Both the position numbers and the translations under genes were made by a program. Of a stretch of DNA of 64,000 nucleotides, positions 6,572 to 33,972 are shown one piece after another; positions within the stretch are counted from its first letter, which is position 1, and the number at the start of each line of letters is the position of its first letter. The DNA lies in contig JALHMR010000008.1 of NCBI GenBank assembly GCA_022843945.1, forward strand, positions 1 through 64,000, written 5' to 3'. The DNA is from Rhodospirillaceae bacterium. Its GTDB lineage: Bacteria > Pseudomonadota > Alphaproteobacteria > CACIAM-22H2. The notes beneath the pieces were generated by a model. That model was not told where the DNA came from. It was given only the letters and a program-made list of their open reading frames with translations, and did not search any database.

Positions 6572-7072
6572 ATGCTCGCCTTCGGCGGCTCACAACGCCT
6601 TGGCCTGATCCTGGTGGTCGCGATCATCGTGGCCGACCAGCTCAGCAAGCACTGGATTTACCAGGCATTGGTCGTCGAGGGGCCGCGCGCGATCCTGGTC
6701 ACGCCGTTTTTCAACCTGGTGACGGTATGGAACTACGGCGTCAGCTTCGGCATGTTCAATAGCGGGTCGTCGGCCGCCTCCTGGATCTTCATCTTGCTCG
6801 CTCTGGCGATTTCCACCGTGCTGGCGGTCTGGCTGGTGCGCACAGACCGCCACCTCGTTGCCGCCGCCCTCGGCCTGATTCTCGGCGGGGCGATCGGCAA
6901 TGTGATCGACCGGGTGCGATACGGCGCGGTTTTCGATTTTCTCGACTTCCACGTGGCTGGCTGGCACTGGCCGGCATTCAACGTGGCCGATGCCGCTATT
7001 TGCGTGGGGGTTGCCGTTTTGTTCATCGACTCCTTGTTTGGCGAGGGTAAGGAGGGTAAAAAAGCGACATGA
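6572..7072 (+). CDS. lspA: lipoprotein signal peptidase (signal peptidase II)
   Basis: This 166-residue inner-membrane aspartyl protease cleaves the signal peptides of prolipoproteins. It has four predicted membrane segments and both catalytic aspartates: Asp113 in GNVIDRVRYG and Asp140 in FNVADA. The ATG at 6572 lies 6 bases after the ileS stop, and the TGA overlaps the next start (ATGA). The following gene encodes one of its likely substrates, a lipoprotein. Confidence 0.97.
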   Translation: MLAFGGSQRLGLILVVAIIVADQLSKHWIYQALVVEGPRAILVTPFFNLVTVWNYGVSFGMFNSGSSAASWIFILLALAISTVLAVWLVRTDRHLVAAALGLILGGAIGNVIDRVRYGAVFDFLDFHVAGWHWPAFNVADAAICVGVAVLFIDSLFGEGKEGKKAT

Positions 7073-7641
7073 CTCCGCGTCCTGCCGCCACGCTTCCCTT
7101 GTTGATCCTTGCCGCCAGCCTTCTGGGCGGTTGCGGCGACGCGCGCAAGGCCCTGGGCTTCGACAAGTCCAGCCCCGACGAGTTCAAGATCGTCAGCCGT
7201 GCCCCGCTGTCCCTGCCGCCCGACTATGCCTTGCGCCCGCCGCAGCCAGGCGCTGTCCGGCCGCAGGAGCAGGCGATCCCGCAGCGGGCTCAGGCCGCTG
7301 TGACCGGCGTTGCCGGTGTTCCGGCGCGGGCCAACGACGCCACCGCCAGCGGCAGCGTGGGTGAGAACGCGTTGCTGGCGAAGGTCGGCGCCGCCCGCGC
7401 AAATCCGGATATCCGCGACATTATCGACCGCGAGTCCACGTCTCTGGCTGAGGCCGATATCACCTTCCTGGATCGCGTGATGTTCTGGCGCAAGCCGGAA
7501 GACACCTCGCCGCTGGTGGATCCGGAGCGTGAGACCCAGCGCCTGCGGGAGAACGCCGCTCTCGGGCGCCCGGTCAACGAAGGTGATACGCCGACCGTCC
7601 GTCGCCGCAAGAAGGCCCCGCTCGAGGCGCTGTTCAACTGA
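7069..7641 (+). CDS. DUF3035 lipoprotein, BamF-like
   Basis: The 190-residue protein begins with a lipoprotein signal peptide whose lipobox LLGGC places the lipidated Cys at residue 22. Next comes the DUF3035 signature, SPDEFKIVSRAPLSLPPDY followed by ALRPP. Members of this family in Caulobacter are BamF subunits of the outer-membrane beta-barrel assembly machine; that assignment is from family knowledge. The rest is low complexity. An SD sequence (GGAGGG) precedes the ATG. Its place directly behind lspA suits a lipoprotein. Confidence 0.8.
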   Translation: MTPRPAATLPLLILAASLLGGCGDARKALGFDKSSPDEFKIVSRAPLSLPPDYALRPPQPGAVRPQEQAIPQRAQAAVTGVAGVPARANDATASGSVGENALLAKVGAARANPDIRDIIDRESTSLAEADITFLDRVMFWRKPEDTSPLVDPERETQRLRENAALGRPVNEGDTPTVRRRKKAPLEALFN

Positions 7642-29321: not shown

Positions 29322-30197
29322 GTGAATCTTCTGATCATCTACAACCCGGTCGCCGGGCAGCGCCGCCGGCGCCGCTTCGCCGCCGTGCTCGCCGATCTGC
29401 ACCGGCACGGGCTCGAGCCAACGCTGAGGGCGACGACGCGGCGCGGCGATGCCGAGGCCTTCGCCCGCGCGGCGCGCGATGGCGGCTATGACCGCGTGGT
29501 GGTGGCCGGCGGCGACGGCACCATCAACGAGGCGATCAACGGGCTCGCCGGCAGCGCCGTGCCGCTGGCCATCGTGCCGCTGGGCACGGCCAACGTGCTG
29601 GCGGCAGAGATCGGGCTGGGCGGCCGGCCGCGCGACATCGCCGCGGCGATCGTCAGCGGCACGCCGCGACCGATCGCGCTGGGCCGCCTGGCCACCGGGT
29701 CGGGCGCGCGACGCTTCGCCATGATGGCCGCTATCGGCTTCGATGCGCAGGTCGTGGCGCGTGTTGATCCGGGCTTGAAGCGCCTGACCGGCAAGTTTGC
29801 CTACCTCACGGCAGGGGCGCGCGAGCTGCTCCGCGGACCCGGTCTCACCTTCCGCCTCGACATCGATGGCCGGGTTCACCAGGCCGCCTCGGCGATCATC
29901 GCCAAAGGTCATTTCTACGGCGGCCGCTTCGTCGTCTGCCCGGAGGCGCGGCTGGAGGAACCCTCGCTCCAGGTCTGCCTGTTCGGCAAGACCGGGCGCT
30001 GGCATGTCGTGCGCTACGCCGTGGCGCTGGCGCTGGGCCGCCTGTCGGCGCTGTCCGATGTCACGGTGGTCCCGGCGCGGCGCATCGTGATCGACGGCCC
30101 GCCGGGCGAGCCGCTGCAGGTCGACGGCGACAGCGATGGCCGTCTGCCGGCGACCATCGATATCGAAGCCGGCGCGCTCAACCTCGTCTATCCCTAG
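29322..30197 (+). CDS. diacylglycerol-kinase-family lipid kinase (YegS/DagK type)
   Basis: The 291-residue protein has the lipid-kinase catalytic domain: IIYNPVAGQ near the start, the ATP-binding GGDGTINEAINGL and PLGTANVLA. The C-terminal beta domain ends in IDIEAGALNLVYP. It likely phosphorylates diacylglycerol, so it could recycle the DAG released by the divergent PlcP-like enzyme. The GTG at 29322 starts the recognisable domain. The last 45 bases have a diverged second copy at 32,082. Confidence 0.87.
   Translation: MNLLIIYNPVAGQRRRRRFAAVLADLHRHGLEPTLRATTRRGDAEAFARAARDGGYDRVVVAGGDGTINEAINGLAGSAVPLAIVPLGTANVLAAEIGLGGRPRDIAAAIVSGTPRPIALGRLATGSGARRFAMMAAIGFDAQVVARVDPGLKRLTGKFAYLTAGARELLRGPGLTFRLDIDGRVHQAASAIIAKGHFYGGRFVVCPEARLEEPSLQVCLFGKTGRWHVVRYAVALALGRLSALSDVTVVPARRIVIDGPPGEPLQVDGDSDGRLPATIDIEAGALNLVYP
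30153..30197 (+). repeat. 3' end of lipid kinase gene: left copy of diverged direct repeat
   Basis: These 45 bases encode the last 14 residues and stop of the lipid kinase. They match 32,082-32,126 at 39 of 45 positions by hand alignment; four of the six differences are third-codon-position changes, the others give Ile/Val and Asn/Asp. The two-gene cassette lies exactly between the copies. Confidence 0.85.
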
Positions 30198-30389
30198 GCT
30201 GCGGCACTCTGCAACTTTCGACTGTATAAAAGTATTGACTGCATCTTACTAGTAGCGGCTCATATCGGTGTCCGTTGGGTTCCGGCGGCAGCAAGAAACG
30301 CGTCATGGCTGCAGGACGCCCCGCTCTTAGGCGCGCCGAACAGCAGGCATCGAGGACCGAAGGCGCTTCGTTGAGAAGGAGCCTTGCGC

Positions 30390-31160
30390 ATGAGCGACGA
30401 ATACCTGTGGGATATCTACCCCGATATCGTCAACGGACGGGAGCCCCCGTTTGTGCTGCTTATTCCCACACCCGAAGACGAAGACCATGTCCACTTCGCC
30501 TTCGTCGAGGATGTGGAGGAAGTCGAAGAGCCGGCGGCGCTCGAGGCGCCGGACGCAAGCACGATGGTCGGAAAACATCCGGTGTTCAGAAATCAGGCGG
30601 TTCGCTTCCGTACCAGCGGTCCCGACGCCAGGATGTTTCTTGATGCCGTGGCTGGGTTTGATCAGCTTGATGCGGACAACATCACGGATGCGCAGCGACA
30701 GAAGCGCAGGGCGCAACTTCGCGAGTTCTTCAAGAAGGTGCCGCTGCCCATCATCGATATCTATGTGTCCAAATTCGATGCGGACTACAAGGCGATAAAG
30801 CAGACGTTGCTGCCCGGAAGCTGGACGCTCGTGGTCTTCCGTGACGGCGCGCTGGAGGCGGGTCTGCGGCCGGTGATCTATGGTGCGCCTGAGTTCCAGC
30901 CGGCAGAGCGGATTCGCTATGCGCGCCTCCGATCCCTGGCCGCGGTCACACCGCCGGTTGAGCTACGGCTGCGCGATATTTTCTCGTTCAATCATATTCG
31001 GGATGCTGACATCAGCACCGAGGATGACGGCTCTGCGACGCCGCAACCGAAACCGCAGCCCATGCCTGGCCTTGATGCGGCAAATCCGTGGAAGCAGACG
31101 CACAGGCAGGAAGACTACGCTCAGAAGGCCGTGCAATACCAGAAGCTGACCCAAGGCTGA
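30390..31160 (+). CDS. unrecognised protein, first gene of the cassette
   Basis: The 256-residue protein belongs to no family I know. It has an acidic stretch (VEDVEEVEEP, about residues 44-53), a mixed alpha/beta middle (DIYVSKFDADYKAIKQTL, WTLVVFRDGALEAGL) and a Pro/Gln-rich linker (PQPKPQPMPG) before a short charged tail. No signal peptide or membrane helix is seen. AAGGAG lies 8 bases before the ATG. Nine bases separate it from the MBL gene, so the pair is an operon. A role as partner, regulator or antidote of the MBL protein is a guess. Confidence 0.85.
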   Translation: MSDEYLWDIYPDIVNGREPPFVLLIPTPEDEDHVHFAFVEDVEEVEEPAALEAPDASTMVGKHPVFRNQAVRFRTSGPDARMFLDAVAGFDQLDADNITDAQRQKRRAQLREFFKKVPLPIIDIYVSKFDADYKAIKQTLLPGSWTLVVFRDGALEAGLRPVIYGAPEFQPAERIRYARLRSLAAVTPPVELRLRDIFSFNHIRDADISTEDDGSATPQPKPQPMPGLDAANPWKQTHRQEDYAQKAVQYQKLTQG

Positions 31161-31169
31161 GAGGGCGCC

Positions 31170-32063
31170 ATGTCTTCTGAAAGAGCGCGCGAGCTGATTG
31201 TCGGCGGAGACTTGGCTCAGATCGACGGCTTCAATCCACTTGCCGAGGTCGAGTCACTGAACGGAGTTAGGGTGTACGACGTTGGGCAGGGTGACAGTAT
31301 CGCTATCCTCGACAATCGTGACCGCCCCGTTCTGCAGATCGACTATGGGGGCCGGCAGGACAGCCCGTTCAGGGATCAATCTTCAGAATACATCGACAAG
31401 TGCATGCCGGCAGGGGATTGCCGGCTCGTCATGGTCACGCATTGGGATGAAGACCATTGGTGCTCCGCGGCGCGTGCGGCGGCCGTCCGCGGTGCGACTT
31501 GGCTTGTGCCTCGGCAGGTAACCTCCCCGAGGGCCGTACGATTCTCCACTGAGCTGACGGATGTTTCATGCATCCCGGAAAGCCGGGTCGGTCAGGCCTT
31601 CTGTTTCAAGGCCATGAATGGCGATGAAGTCTGGTGGGAGAAGATCGCCGCGTCAGAGCCTGACGCGTCGAAGCATGAGGACTGCAACAGAACGGGAGTT
31701 GCGCTGGCGGTCGTCAAGCGCACGCCGTCGGGAGAAGGCACCGTCATTCTCGTGCCGGGTGACGCGCCCTTTGGCCGCGTGCGCTACTATGAACATCTGC
31801 GCGCGCAGAAGCTGACCTTGAGGGGGCTGGTGGCGTTTCACCATGGCTCCCGATCGCACTGGACGGAGGCTACGCGTCGGCTGCTGCGGACCTGGCCCGT
31901 CAACCGGTGGGACGTGCGCACTGTCTTCTCATGCTCCCGGGACAATCCGTTCAGGCATCCACATGTGGAGAACTATGAAGAGGAAATGGGCGAAACGATC
32001 GAAATCGTCCGAACACCATCGTGCCGTGTCGGCAACGACCGCTATATCGACATAGCCTTCTGA
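31170..32063 (+). CDS. soluble ComEC-type MBL-fold hydrolase, second gene of the cassette
   Basis: The 297-residue protein matches the metallo-beta-lactamase domain of ComEC: VYDVGQGDSIAI at 35-46, metal motif HWDEDH at 91-96 (HxDxDH as in ComEC), PGDA with Asp198, and FHHGSRSH with His225. It lacks the ComEC membrane domain and any signal peptide, so it is cytoplasmic. ComEC-type MBL domains are predicted nucleases or phosphodiesterases. All metal ligands are kept, so it should be active. Substrate unknown. It ends one base before the diverged kinase-end remnant zone. Confidence 0.88.
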   Translation: MSSERARELIVGGDLAQIDGFNPLAEVESLNGVRVYDVGQGDSIAILDNRDRPVLQIDYGGRQDSPFRDQSSEYIDKCMPAGDCRLVMVTHWDEDHWCSAARAAAVRGATWLVPRQVTSPRAVRFSTELTDVSCIPESRVGQAFCFKAMNGDEVWWEKIAASEPDASKHEDCNRTGVALAVVKRTPSGEGTVILVPGDAPFGRVRYYEHLRAQKLTLRGLVAFHHGSRSHWTEATRRLLRTWPVNRWDVRTVFSCSRDNPFRHPHVENYEEEMGETIEIVRTPSCRVGNDRYIDIAF

Positions 32064-32081
32064 CGACTGCCTGCCGCGCCC

Positions 32082-32126
32082 ACCATCGATGTCGAGGCTG
32101 GCGCGCTAGACCTCGTCTATCCGTAG
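32082..32126 (+). repeat. displaced, diverged copy of lipid kinase 3' end (right copy)
   Basis: Read in frame it encodes TIDVEAGALDLVYP and a TAG stop, against TIDIEAGALNLVYP in the live gene. Weaker similarity extends leftwards to about 32,064 with a small indel. There is no upstream kinase sequence, so this is a remnant marking the far edge of the cassette. Confidence 0.85.
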
Positions 32127-32236: not shown

Positions 32237-33202
32237 ATGATGCTGCGTTCACTTGCCGTTGCCATGCTGCTCGTTGCAGGTGGTGCACTGCCCGCCGCCG
32301 CCGAGAAGCTCGCCGTCACCCAGTACGGCCGCATCACCGGCTCGCTGCCCTGGGCGGTCGCCATGAAGAAGGGCTGGTTCAAGGAAGAGGGCCTGGTCAT
32401 CGAGGAGATCGTCTCGGGGGCCGGCGGCGGCACGGCGCTGCGCAACATGCTGGCCAGCGGCCTGCCCTATGCCGAGGTAGCGACCTCGGCGGCGCTGGCG
32501 GCCATGAAATCCGGCGTCGAGCTGCGCATCGTCAATTCGGCCAGCAACCACATCGGCGAGATCGCGCTGGTGACCGTCCCCACCAGCCCGGTGCGCAGCG
32601 TCAAGGACCTGGCCGGGCGCAAGGCCGGCTTCACCGCCCCGCGCTCGACCAGCGAGATGCTGATCCGCATGGCCTTCGAGAAGGAGGGGCTCACCGGCAA
32701 GGTCGAGTTGCTGGCCACCGGCGGCTTCGGGCCGGGCCTCACCATGCTCGGCGTGGGCGCCATCGACGCGGCGACCCTGACCGATCCCATCCTCACCCTG
32801 CAGCCCGACAAGTACCGGCCGCTCCTGGCCTTCGCCGACGTGATCCCGCGCGTCACCTGGCTGGTTGGCGTGACGACGCCGCAATTCGCCGCCAGCCAGC
32901 CGGACAAGGTGCGCGCCCTGATCCGGGTGCGCCGCAAGGGCGTGGATTTCATCTACGCCAACCGCGCCGAGGCGGCGGCGATCTACGCCGAGGTCTGGGA
33001 GACCAAACGCGAGGAGGTCGACCGTTTCTTCCCCAAGTATTTCGACATGCCTGGCGAATGGACGCGCGGCGAGTTCGACAAGGAAGGTCTGGCGACCATG
33101 TCGGCGGGCCTGCAGCTGATCGGGGAGGTCGACAAGCCGGTGGACTGGAACGCGATCATCGACCAGCGCTTCCTGCCCGAGGAGCTGCGCCGGCCGCTGT
33201 AG
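32237..33202 (+). CDS. ABC transporter substrate-binding protein (SsuA/NMT1-like)
   Basis: The 321-residue periplasmic protein has a signal peptide (cleavage near LPAAAE) and the aromatic-sulfonate/nitrate-type binding fold: AMKKGWFKEEGLVIE, ASGLPYAEV, then the DLAGRKAGF hinge segment. No permease or ATPase gene is adjacent, so it is an orphan that may serve a transporter elsewhere. GGAGG lies six bases before the ATG; a second ATG follows directly. Confidence 0.88.
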   Translation: MMLRSLAVAMLLVAGGALPAAAEKLAVTQYGRITGSLPWAVAMKKGWFKEEGLVIEEIVSGAGGGTALRNMLASGLPYAEVATSAALAAMKSGVELRIVNSASNHIGEIALVTVPTSPVRSVKDLAGRKAGFTAPRSTSEMLIRMAFEKEGLTGKVELLATGGFGPGLTMLGVGAIDAATLTDPILTLQPDKYRPLLAFADVIPRVTWLVGVTTPQFAASQPDKVRALIRVRRKGVDFIYANRAEAAAIYAEVWETKREEVDRFFPKYFDMPGEWTRGEFDKEGLATMSAGLQLIGEVDKPVDWNAIIDQRFLPEELRRPL

Positions 33203-33270: not shown

Positions 33271-33972
33271 ATGAGCAAAGGGCGGGTGCTGATCACCGGC
33301 GGCGCTTCCGGCATCGGCCGCGCGACGGCCGAGCGCTGCCGGGCCGACGGCTACGACGTGGTGGTCATCGACCGGGAGCCGGGCGGCATCCAGGCCGATC
33401 TGAGCAAGCCCAGGGACACGGAGGCGGCGCTCAAGGAAGCGCTGCGCGGCGGGCCGATCACCCGCCTGGTCAACAATGTCGGCGTGGTGCGGCCCGGCCC
33501 GGTCGAGGAGCAGACGATCGAGGATCTGGAAGCCGCCGTGTCGCTCAACCTGCGTTGCGCCATCCAATGCCTGCAGGCGCTGCTGCCGGGCATGAAGGAG
33601 CAGCACTTCGGCCGGGTGGTGAACATCGCCTCGCGCGCCGCGCTGGGCAAGGAGCTGCGCACGGTCTATGCCGCGACCAAGGCCGGTCTCATCGGCATGG
33701 CGCGGGTCTGGGCCCTCGAGCTTGGAAGCTTCGGCATCACCGCCAATGCCATCGGTCCGGGCCCGATCCGCACGGCGCTGTTTGATCGGGCCAACCCGCC
33801 CGACAGCCCGCGCACCCAGGCGATCATCGACGCGGTGCCGGTGCGCCGCATGGGCACGCCCGACGACGTCGCCAACGCGGCCGCCTTCCTGCTCGATCAG
33901 CGGAGCGGCTTCGTGACTGGCCAGGTACTCTATGTCTGCGGCGGCATGACCGTCGGCGTCGCTTCGGTCTAG
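33271..33972 (+). CDS. short-chain dehydrogenase/reductase
   Basis: The 233-residue SDR has the nucleotide-binding TGGASGIG (9-16), NNVG, and the catalytic pair in YAATKAG. Asp after the second strand (VVIDRE) suggests NAD(H). It lies 68 bases behind the substrate-binding protein gene and may act on its ligand, but no sequence evidence shows this. Confidence 0.9.
   Translation: MSKGRVLITGGASGIGRATAERCRADGYDVVVIDREPGGIQADLSKPRDTEAALKEALRGGPITRLVNNVGVVRPGPVEEQTIEDLEAAVSLNLRCAIQCLQALLPGMKEQHFGRVVNIASRAALGKELRTVYAATKAGLIGMARVWALELGSFGITANAIGPGPIRTALFDRANPPDSPRTQAIIDAVPVRRMGTPDDVANAAAFLLDQRSGFVTGQVLYVCGGMTVGVASV

What the first reader, a model, noticed from the sequence alone, without database searches (positions are those of the whole stretch)
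30153..32126. Unknown two-gene cassette with a soluble ComEC-type MBL protein, bounded by diverged copies of a core gene end
Between two imperfect 45-base copies of the lipid kinase 3' end sits an operon of a 256-residue protein of no known family and a soluble ComEC-like MBL hydrolase with all metal ligands kept (HWDEDH, PGDA, FHHGSRSH). Composition is clearly lower in GC than the host gene (36 and 35 of 60 versus 46 of 60 in hand-counted lines). Free-standing ComEC-type MBL proteins paired with an unknown partner suggest a nuclease or phosphodiesterase effector with a sensor or antidote, a plausible new defence or toxin-antitoxin-like module.
Basis: partly seen in the sequence, partly recalled or inferred. 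Interest (0 to 1): 0.86.

Follow-up and report, generated by a model that had tools for sequence, protein, structure and literature searches.

The report
ComEC-type nuclease pair in defence islands
A pair of genes, one encoding a probable DNA-cutting enzyme and one an uncharacterised partner, was pasted in behind a core gene of this bacterium, and the same pair turns up in other bacteria beside known anti-virus genes, so it is probably an undescribed anti-phage (or bacterial-warfare) module.

Summary
The window carries a two-gene operon, A (256 aa, no known family) and B (297 aa, soluble ComEC-type MBL with every metal-ligand motif). It lies between the lipid kinase 3' end and a 39/45-identical copy of that end, found only twice in the genome. 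It has foreign codon composition (GC3 0.71 against about 0.9) and is absent from 60 sampled relatives. In the one same-genus genome, the kinase runs straight into the SDR gene.

The A-B pair recurs as a unit: Caulobacter (B 48% identical), Bosea (46%; partner frameshifted) and two more distant alphaproteobacteria. All three closest B relatives lie within 0.65-1.3 kb of known anti-phage genes: PD-T7-1/Septu-like genes near Tn7-like transposase genes, complete Kiwa, and Avs3. Remoter relatives lie beside SIR2-HerA, a GajB-like helicase and Mrr genes. In two distant genomes the pair instead follows a peptidoglycan-binding gene whose family occurs next to VgrG (type VI secretion).

Best reading: a two-gene conflict module, most likely anti-phage, in which B is the DNase effector and A restrains or triggers it. 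It resembles the gated MBL pro-nucleases of Hachiman, Avs, Lamassu and canu, but shows no protease partner and no large gating insertions. The function of A, DNase activity and phage protection are untested.

The parts
29322..30197 (+). YegS-type lipid (diacylglycerol) kinase, the host core gene whose 3' end borders the cassette
   Evidence: Pfam DAGK_cat 5.4e-31 and YegS_C 2.4e-20; 74% identical in the same-genus genome G001
30153..30197 (+). Repeat copy 1: last 45 bases of the kinase gene (TIDIEAGALNLVYP*)
   Evidence: 39/45 identical to copy 2; score 64 vs null maximum 36; only two copies in the genome
30198..30389 (+). A+T-richer leader with AAGGAG RBS before gene A; no sigma-70-like promoter found by the consensus scan
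30390..31160 (+). Gene A, 256 aa partner of no known family: alpha/beta N-terminal part, proline-rich hinge, C-terminal helix. Residues invariant in five homologs (first Met and S2 aside): F38 E40 R106 L110 G143 W145 L194 S199 H202 D207 D213 P218 P222 P224
   Evidence: no Pfam/PADLOC hit and only a sub-threshold NCBIfam hit; homologs; low-confidence AF2 model pLDDT 52.6
30978..30995 (+). Core of the A-family signature (I/V)(F/I)S-x2-H (here IFSFNH), followed by an acidic stretch and the Pro-rich hinge
   Evidence: alignments
31170..32063 (+). Gene B, 297 aa free-standing ComEC-type MBL hydrolase, predicted DNase effector
   Evidence: PDB profile hits only to ComEC at E<=0.01 (7.8e-5, 9.6e-4); Foldseek best hit 9ic4, ComEC beta-lactamase-like domain, E 1e-8
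31440..31457 (+). B metal motif HWDEDH (HxDxDH)
   Evidence: alignment A3
31755..31766 (+). B metal motif PGDA
   Evidence: alignment A3
31836..31850 (+). B metal motif FHHGS
   Evidence: alignment A3
31944..31961 (+). B ComEC-type N-x3-HP motif
32082..32126 (+). Repeat copy 2: diverged kinase 3' end remnant (TIDVEAGALDLVYP*) 18 nt after gene B

Best explanation
A horizontally acquired two-gene conflict module, most likely anti-phage. B is a soluble MBL-fold DNase of the ComEC family and acts as the effector. A is made first from the same transcript, pairs with B, and keeps it inactive until a trigger (most likely infection) frees or activates it; B then cuts DNA and stops phage growth or kills the cell. 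The module entered the host at the 3' end of a lipid kinase gene, leaving a gene-end copy on each side, as an att-flanked element without its own integrase would. Shown: foreign composition, absence in relatives, the flanking repeat, the recurring A-B pair, defence-island context, ComEC-type fold and motifs. Inferred: DNase activity, A-B binding, the direction of control by A, the trigger, the route of entry.
For: A lies directly upstream of B in every assessable locus: window, Caulobacter L004 (A stop abuts B ATG; B 48% identical, A 26%, E 9e-12), Bosea L005 (overlapping, A frameshifted; A vs Caulobacter A E 4e-10), G398 and G769. Known defence genes adjoin all three closest B relatives: L004 PD-T7-1-like (6.6e-53), Septu PtuAB-like HNH (2.6e-46) and Ppl-like ATPase (7.9e-29) with TnsA and Mu/TnsB-type transposase genes; L005 complete Kiwa (KwaA 7.8e-70, KwaB 1.7e-121); L009/L014 Avs3a (6.7e-191) plus an integrase. 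Remoter B relatives: after SIR2-HerA (HerA 3.3e-160), GajB-like helicase (4.2e-45), Mrr and SIR2-like genes. B resembles ComEC in sequence and predicted fold. ComEC MBL domains (PMC8579336, abstract) and defence MBL proteins of this type (PMC12799240) are reported metal-dependent or protease-activated DNases. Foreign composition and absence from 60 relatives.
Against: No activity or phage data. In the window the pair sits alone among core genes. The second clade (G398, G769) follows LysM/peptidoglycan-binding genes of a kind found next to VgrG. The fold of A is unresolved (pLDDT 52.6; no PDB fold match at E<=0.001) and the linked A-B model gave no confident interface. The family is rare, so the context rests on few loci. 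Its kinship to the functionally tested gated nucleases is weak by sequence (LmuA profile 0.0011).
Confidence: 0.5

Rival explanations
1. Interbacterial toxin pair: B is a DNase delivered by a type VI-like machine, and A is its adaptor or immunity protein; the chromosomal cassette is a stray or immunity copy.
For: In G398 and G769 the pair is preceded by a LysM-like, Ig-like, PG_binding_1 protein; a homolog of that protein follows VgrG in a Thiodictyon plasmid.
Against: No such gene beside the window cassette or the three closest B relatives, all of which lie in defence islands (the upstream side of L009 is cut off). Another plasmid homolog of that protein has no VgrG annotated nearby.
Confidence: 0.2
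2. Gated pro-nuclease system proper: A is a protease that cuts gating loops of B, as in Hachiman-HamM, Avs1 or canu.
For: B belongs to the same ComEC-like MBL group; such nucleases are reported beside several protease families and in defence islands (PMC12799240). A has an invariant S199, H202 and two Asp.
Against: A matches no protease family and has no conserved Cys. B is about 297 aa, against 42 kDa for HamM; ComEC is matched by 251 aa over 218 model positions; low-confidence loops in the B model are 10 residues or shorter.
Confidence: 0.12
3. Addiction (toxin-antitoxin) module: A antidote, B toxin, kept by post-segregational killing rather than by anti-phage use.
For: Two-gene operon with the candidate antidote first; patchy distribution; mobile context.
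Against: Neighbouring genes are mostly defence systems rather than plasmid maintenance genes; nothing tested on toxicity. It overlaps mechanistically with the best reading.
Confidence: 0.12
4. Ordinary hydrolase operon (nucleotide, phosphodiester or other small-molecule metabolism) picked up by transfer.
For: The MBL superfamily is functionally broad; the substrate of B is not shown.
Against: Best match by sequence and fold is ComEC; recurrent placement among defence genes; no metabolic neighbours in common.
Confidence: 0.06

Closest known systems
Gated MBL pro-nucleases of Hachiman (HamM), Avs, Lamassu, DRT and the canu caspase-nuclease system (PMC12799240)
   Same: Soluble ComEC-like MBL protein in a short operon, in defence islands and near transposases, moved between sites with its partner
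   Different: Partner A shows no protease match; no large active-site insertions seen in B; the pair stands alone instead of being fused to HamA, Avs1a or LmuA; B is downstream of A, as in canu, not upstream as in the trypsin-linked systems
ComEC/Rec2 MBL domain (TIGR00361; PDB 9vc6, 9ic4)
   Same: GQGD, HxDxDH, GD, HHGS and N-x3-HP motifs; best fold match
   Different: B has no transmembrane or competence domain and is paired with A; far below the ComEC cut-off (15.9 vs 190 bits)
6A-MBL anti-phage system (NF058524)
   Same: MBL-fold protein in an annotated anti-phage system
   Different: B scores 10.9 bits (cut-off 220); members found here are followed by a large gene that reads to my eye as E2/E1-like, not by A
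Cis-mobilizable att-flanked elements (CIMEs) and gene-3'-end integrating islands (own knowledge, not tested)
   Same: Cargo between two diverged copies of a gene 3' end with the gene left intact
   Different: No integrase in the cassette; crossover and excision not shown; repeat at other pair loci not examined
Type VI secretion effector cassettes with PG-binding carriers
   Same: The second A-B clade follows such a gene
   Different: Absent beside the window pair and its closest relatives

Membership tests
ComEC-type MBL hydrolase superfamily | Metal-ligand motifs HxDxDH, GD, HHGS and N-x3-HP | tested here: met
   Present in the window and relatives
ComEC-type MBL hydrolase superfamily | MBL fold closest to the ComEC MBL domain | tested here: met
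   Foldseek 9ic4 E 1e-8, TM 0.58 by target; sequence profile 9vc6 7.8e-5; the model is a linked A-B chain with only moderate confidence
ComEC-type MBL hydrolase superfamily | Metal-dependent DNase activity | not testable with these tools
   Needs protein
Gated MBL pro-nuclease with partner protease | Partner gene encodes a trypsin-, caspase- or other-family protease | tested here: not met
   No protease family match for A; a novel protease is not excluded
Gated MBL pro-nuclease with partner protease | Two disordered insertions over the active site | tested here: inconclusive
   Only loops of 10 residues or fewer at low confidence in the B model; size near ComEC MBL; no superposition on HamM was made
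Gated MBL pro-nuclease with partner protease | Located in defence islands or near transposases | tested here: met
   Three of three closest relatives; not the window itself
6A-MBL system | Score above the NCBIfam cut-off and the system's own partner | tested here: not met
   10.9 vs 220 bits; different neighbour
Lamassu/Avs/Hachiman system | Core sensor genes in the operon | tested here: not met
   None beside the window pair (by reading the ORFs); Avs3a adjoins one relative only
Toxin-antitoxin module | B toxic alone, neutralised by A | not testable with these tools
   Needs expression
Att-flanked integrative or mobilizable element | Direct repeat of a gene 3' end at both borders and an empty site in relatives | tested here: met
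   Repeat; kinase next to SDR in G001, though the adjacent NMT1-like gene is missing there too
Att-flanked integrative or mobilizable element | Integrase or excision | tested here: not met
   No integrase-sized extra ORF in the 1.9-kb cassette; integrases elsewhere in the genome not searched

The most novel reading that the evidence does not exclude
A new two-gene anti-phage system in which a ComEC-type DNase is controlled without proteolysis by a dedicated partner of a new protein family, and which moves both as island cargo and as a small att-flanked cassette.
Probability: 0.4. Interest if true: 0.68.

Novelty: new variant of a known kind. Interest (0 to 1): 0.55.

Why it matters
MBL pro-nucleases linked to proteases were recently reported as interchangeable parts of several immune systems. 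A pair with no recognisable protease would show a second way of holding the same nuclease type in check, and would add a protein family (A) not found in the Pfam, PADLOC or NCBIfam libraries searched. The small bordered cassette also offers a case of a defence module moving alone into a core gene end. The system is two small genes, so it is directly testable in a laboratory strain.

Tried and rejected
(1) Fusion of A to the MBL in distant relatives: by eye the N-terminus of the Paraburkholderia protein L018 looked like A, but HMM search and profile-profile comparison gave no support; dropped. (2) Fold of A: low-confidence model, no significant match; a run of OB-fold/SSB chains at E 0.3-1.6 is not evidence. 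(3) A-B interface from a chain read through the stop codon: no confident arrangement. (4) Search for A alone in 385 class genomes, plasmids and viral contigs: nothing beyond the window. (5) B profile in two large orders: 0 of 189 and 0 of 177 genomes, so the family is rare in the genomes sampled; which orders these are is not known. (6) Membership in 6A-MBL: rejected. (7) Relatives of B in phage records and E. coli: none.

Full report
What is there. Downstream of a YegS-type lipid kinase (29322-30197) lie two genes on the same strand: A (30390-31160, 256 aa) and B (31170-32063, 297 aa), 9 nt apart, A with a good ribosome-binding site. Eighteen bases after B stands a 45-base copy of the kinase end, 39/45 identical to it. 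The alignment scores 64 where 8000 other places in the window reach at most 36, and only these two copies exist in the genome. The copies read TIDIEAGALNLVYP* and TIDVEAGALDLVYP*. With mismatches 2/0/4 by codon position, copy 2 looks like the end of another working allele rather than a decayed duplicate, though six mismatches are few.

Foreign origin. GC3 is about 0.71 in A and B, 0.89 in the kinase, and 0.92 and 0.91 in the next two genes. A has no match in 60 relatives sampled from the genus, family and class; B has only one marginal hit there (E 1.5e-4, 73 residues, G044). In the same-genus genome G001 the kinase (74% identical) is followed about 50 bp later by the SDR gene that stands at 33271 in the window (93% identical), with no cassette. 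The NMT1-like substrate-binding gene between cassette and SDR (32237-33202) is also missing there, so this is an empty site but not a clean single-event one.

What B is. B has no Pfam match. NCBIfam gives a weak ComEC_Rec2 hit (0.0028) covering residues 32-282, and PADLOC a weak LmuA hit (0.0011). A five-member profile matches solved ComEC proteins at 7.8e-5 and 9.6e-4 and nothing else at E<=0.01. The predicted model has the ComEC beta-lactamase-like domain 9ic4 as its best fold match (E 1e-8). GQGD, HxDxDH, GD, HHGS and N-x3-HP are all kept.

What A is. A has no family above cut-off in three libraries and no PDB sequence match. Its relatives are the genes directly upstream of the B relatives: Caulobacter 26% identical, E 9e-12; Bosea, broken by a frameshift, E 4e-10 against the Caulobacter one; G398 by profile; G769 by alignment only. 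The common plan is an alpha/beta part, the signature (I/V)(F/I)S-x2-H, an acidic stretch, a proline-rich hinge and a variable C-terminus. The model is poor and yields no fold.

The pair elsewhere. The single genome scan with B gave two good loci, both with A upstream; the viral collection gave a third B (48%) at a contig end, so its upstream gene cannot be seen. All three lie beside known defence genes. Caulobacter: a PD-T7-1-like gene 1.1 kb upstream, a Septu-like HNH gene 0.7 kb downstream and a Ppl-like ATPase, with TnsA-like and Mu-transposase genes about 4-5 kb downstream. Bosea: complete Kiwa 1.3 kb downstream. Viral contig: Avs3a 0.65 kb downstream, then an integrase. Remoter MBL relatives (about 25-32% identical, no recognisable A, usually a different N-terminal domain) adjoin SIR2-HerA, a GajB-like helicase, and Mrr plus SIR2-like genes; one lies near an integrase, VapBC and a short ThsB-like TIR gene. 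Only a few loci were available; no matched-control statistic was computed.

A second setting. In two distant genomes of one genus the pair is preceded by a LysM-like, Ig-like, peptidoglycan-binding protein (the LysM part is by eye, Pfam shows PG_binding_1 and a weak MG4). A homolog on a Thiodictyon plasmid follows VgrG; another on an Eleftheria plasmid does not. The pair may therefore also serve in contact-dependent warfare. Both settings fit a nuclease effector with a controlling partner.

Mechanism. Defence MBL proteins of this type are reported to be pro-DNases freed by partner proteases (PMC12799240). B is smaller, with no large low-confidence insertions in its model, and A has no protease signature, so control by binding is my preferred reading. 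A as activator, sensor or novel protease remains possible. Gene order (A first, overlapping or abutting B in most loci) fits tight stoichiometry. DNase activity, binding, trigger and protection are all untested.

Mobility. A repeat of a gene end at both borders with the gene intact is what site-specific integration into a gene 3' end leaves. No integrase lies in the cassette, so mobilisation in trans, a decayed larger element, or homologous exchange with a donor are all possible.

Verdict. The interpretation as a mobile defence-type module is supported by context; its function is inferred. It is filed as a new variant of a known kind: MBL-nuclease conflict modules with a partner family that I could not assign.

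Noticed in passing
L005:7226-7944: The Bosea copy of gene A is split by a frameshift near 7640 while B stays open; either a real inactivation or a sequencing error.
   Followed up: no
L004:4833-16187: Caulobacter island with PD-T7-1-like, PtuAB-like HNH and DEDDh exonuclease genes, TnsA-like endonuclease and a Mu/TnsB-type transposase, plus a Ppl-like ATPase at 33-2300; looks like Tn7-like cargo. A small predicted membrane gene (6784-7236) overlaps the start of the A homolog.
   Followed up: partly
L010:7579-10410 and L015:6730-10830: Pairs of the A-B type with longer A proteins (extra C-terminal domain) behind LysM-like, Ig-like, PG-binding genes; possible secreted or T6SS-linked version.
   Followed up: partly
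L007:7488-8963, L019:7386-8900, L006:7593-8876: Single-gene relatives: a conserved N-terminal domain of about 150-200 aa fused to the same MBL type; in L016 the domain is a separate ORF (6851-7402). It has no Pfam match in the two members tested and is not demonstrably related to A.
   Followed up: partly
L006:2532-8876: Rhizobium plasmid pRLa11 stretch with a second ComEC-like MBL gene, a patatin-like phospholipase gene and an MBL fusion; no PADLOC hit for the two neighbours tested.
   Followed up: no
window:32237-33202: NMT1-like substrate-binding protein gene beside the cassette, of native composition but absent at this site in the same-genus genome G001.
   Followed up: partly
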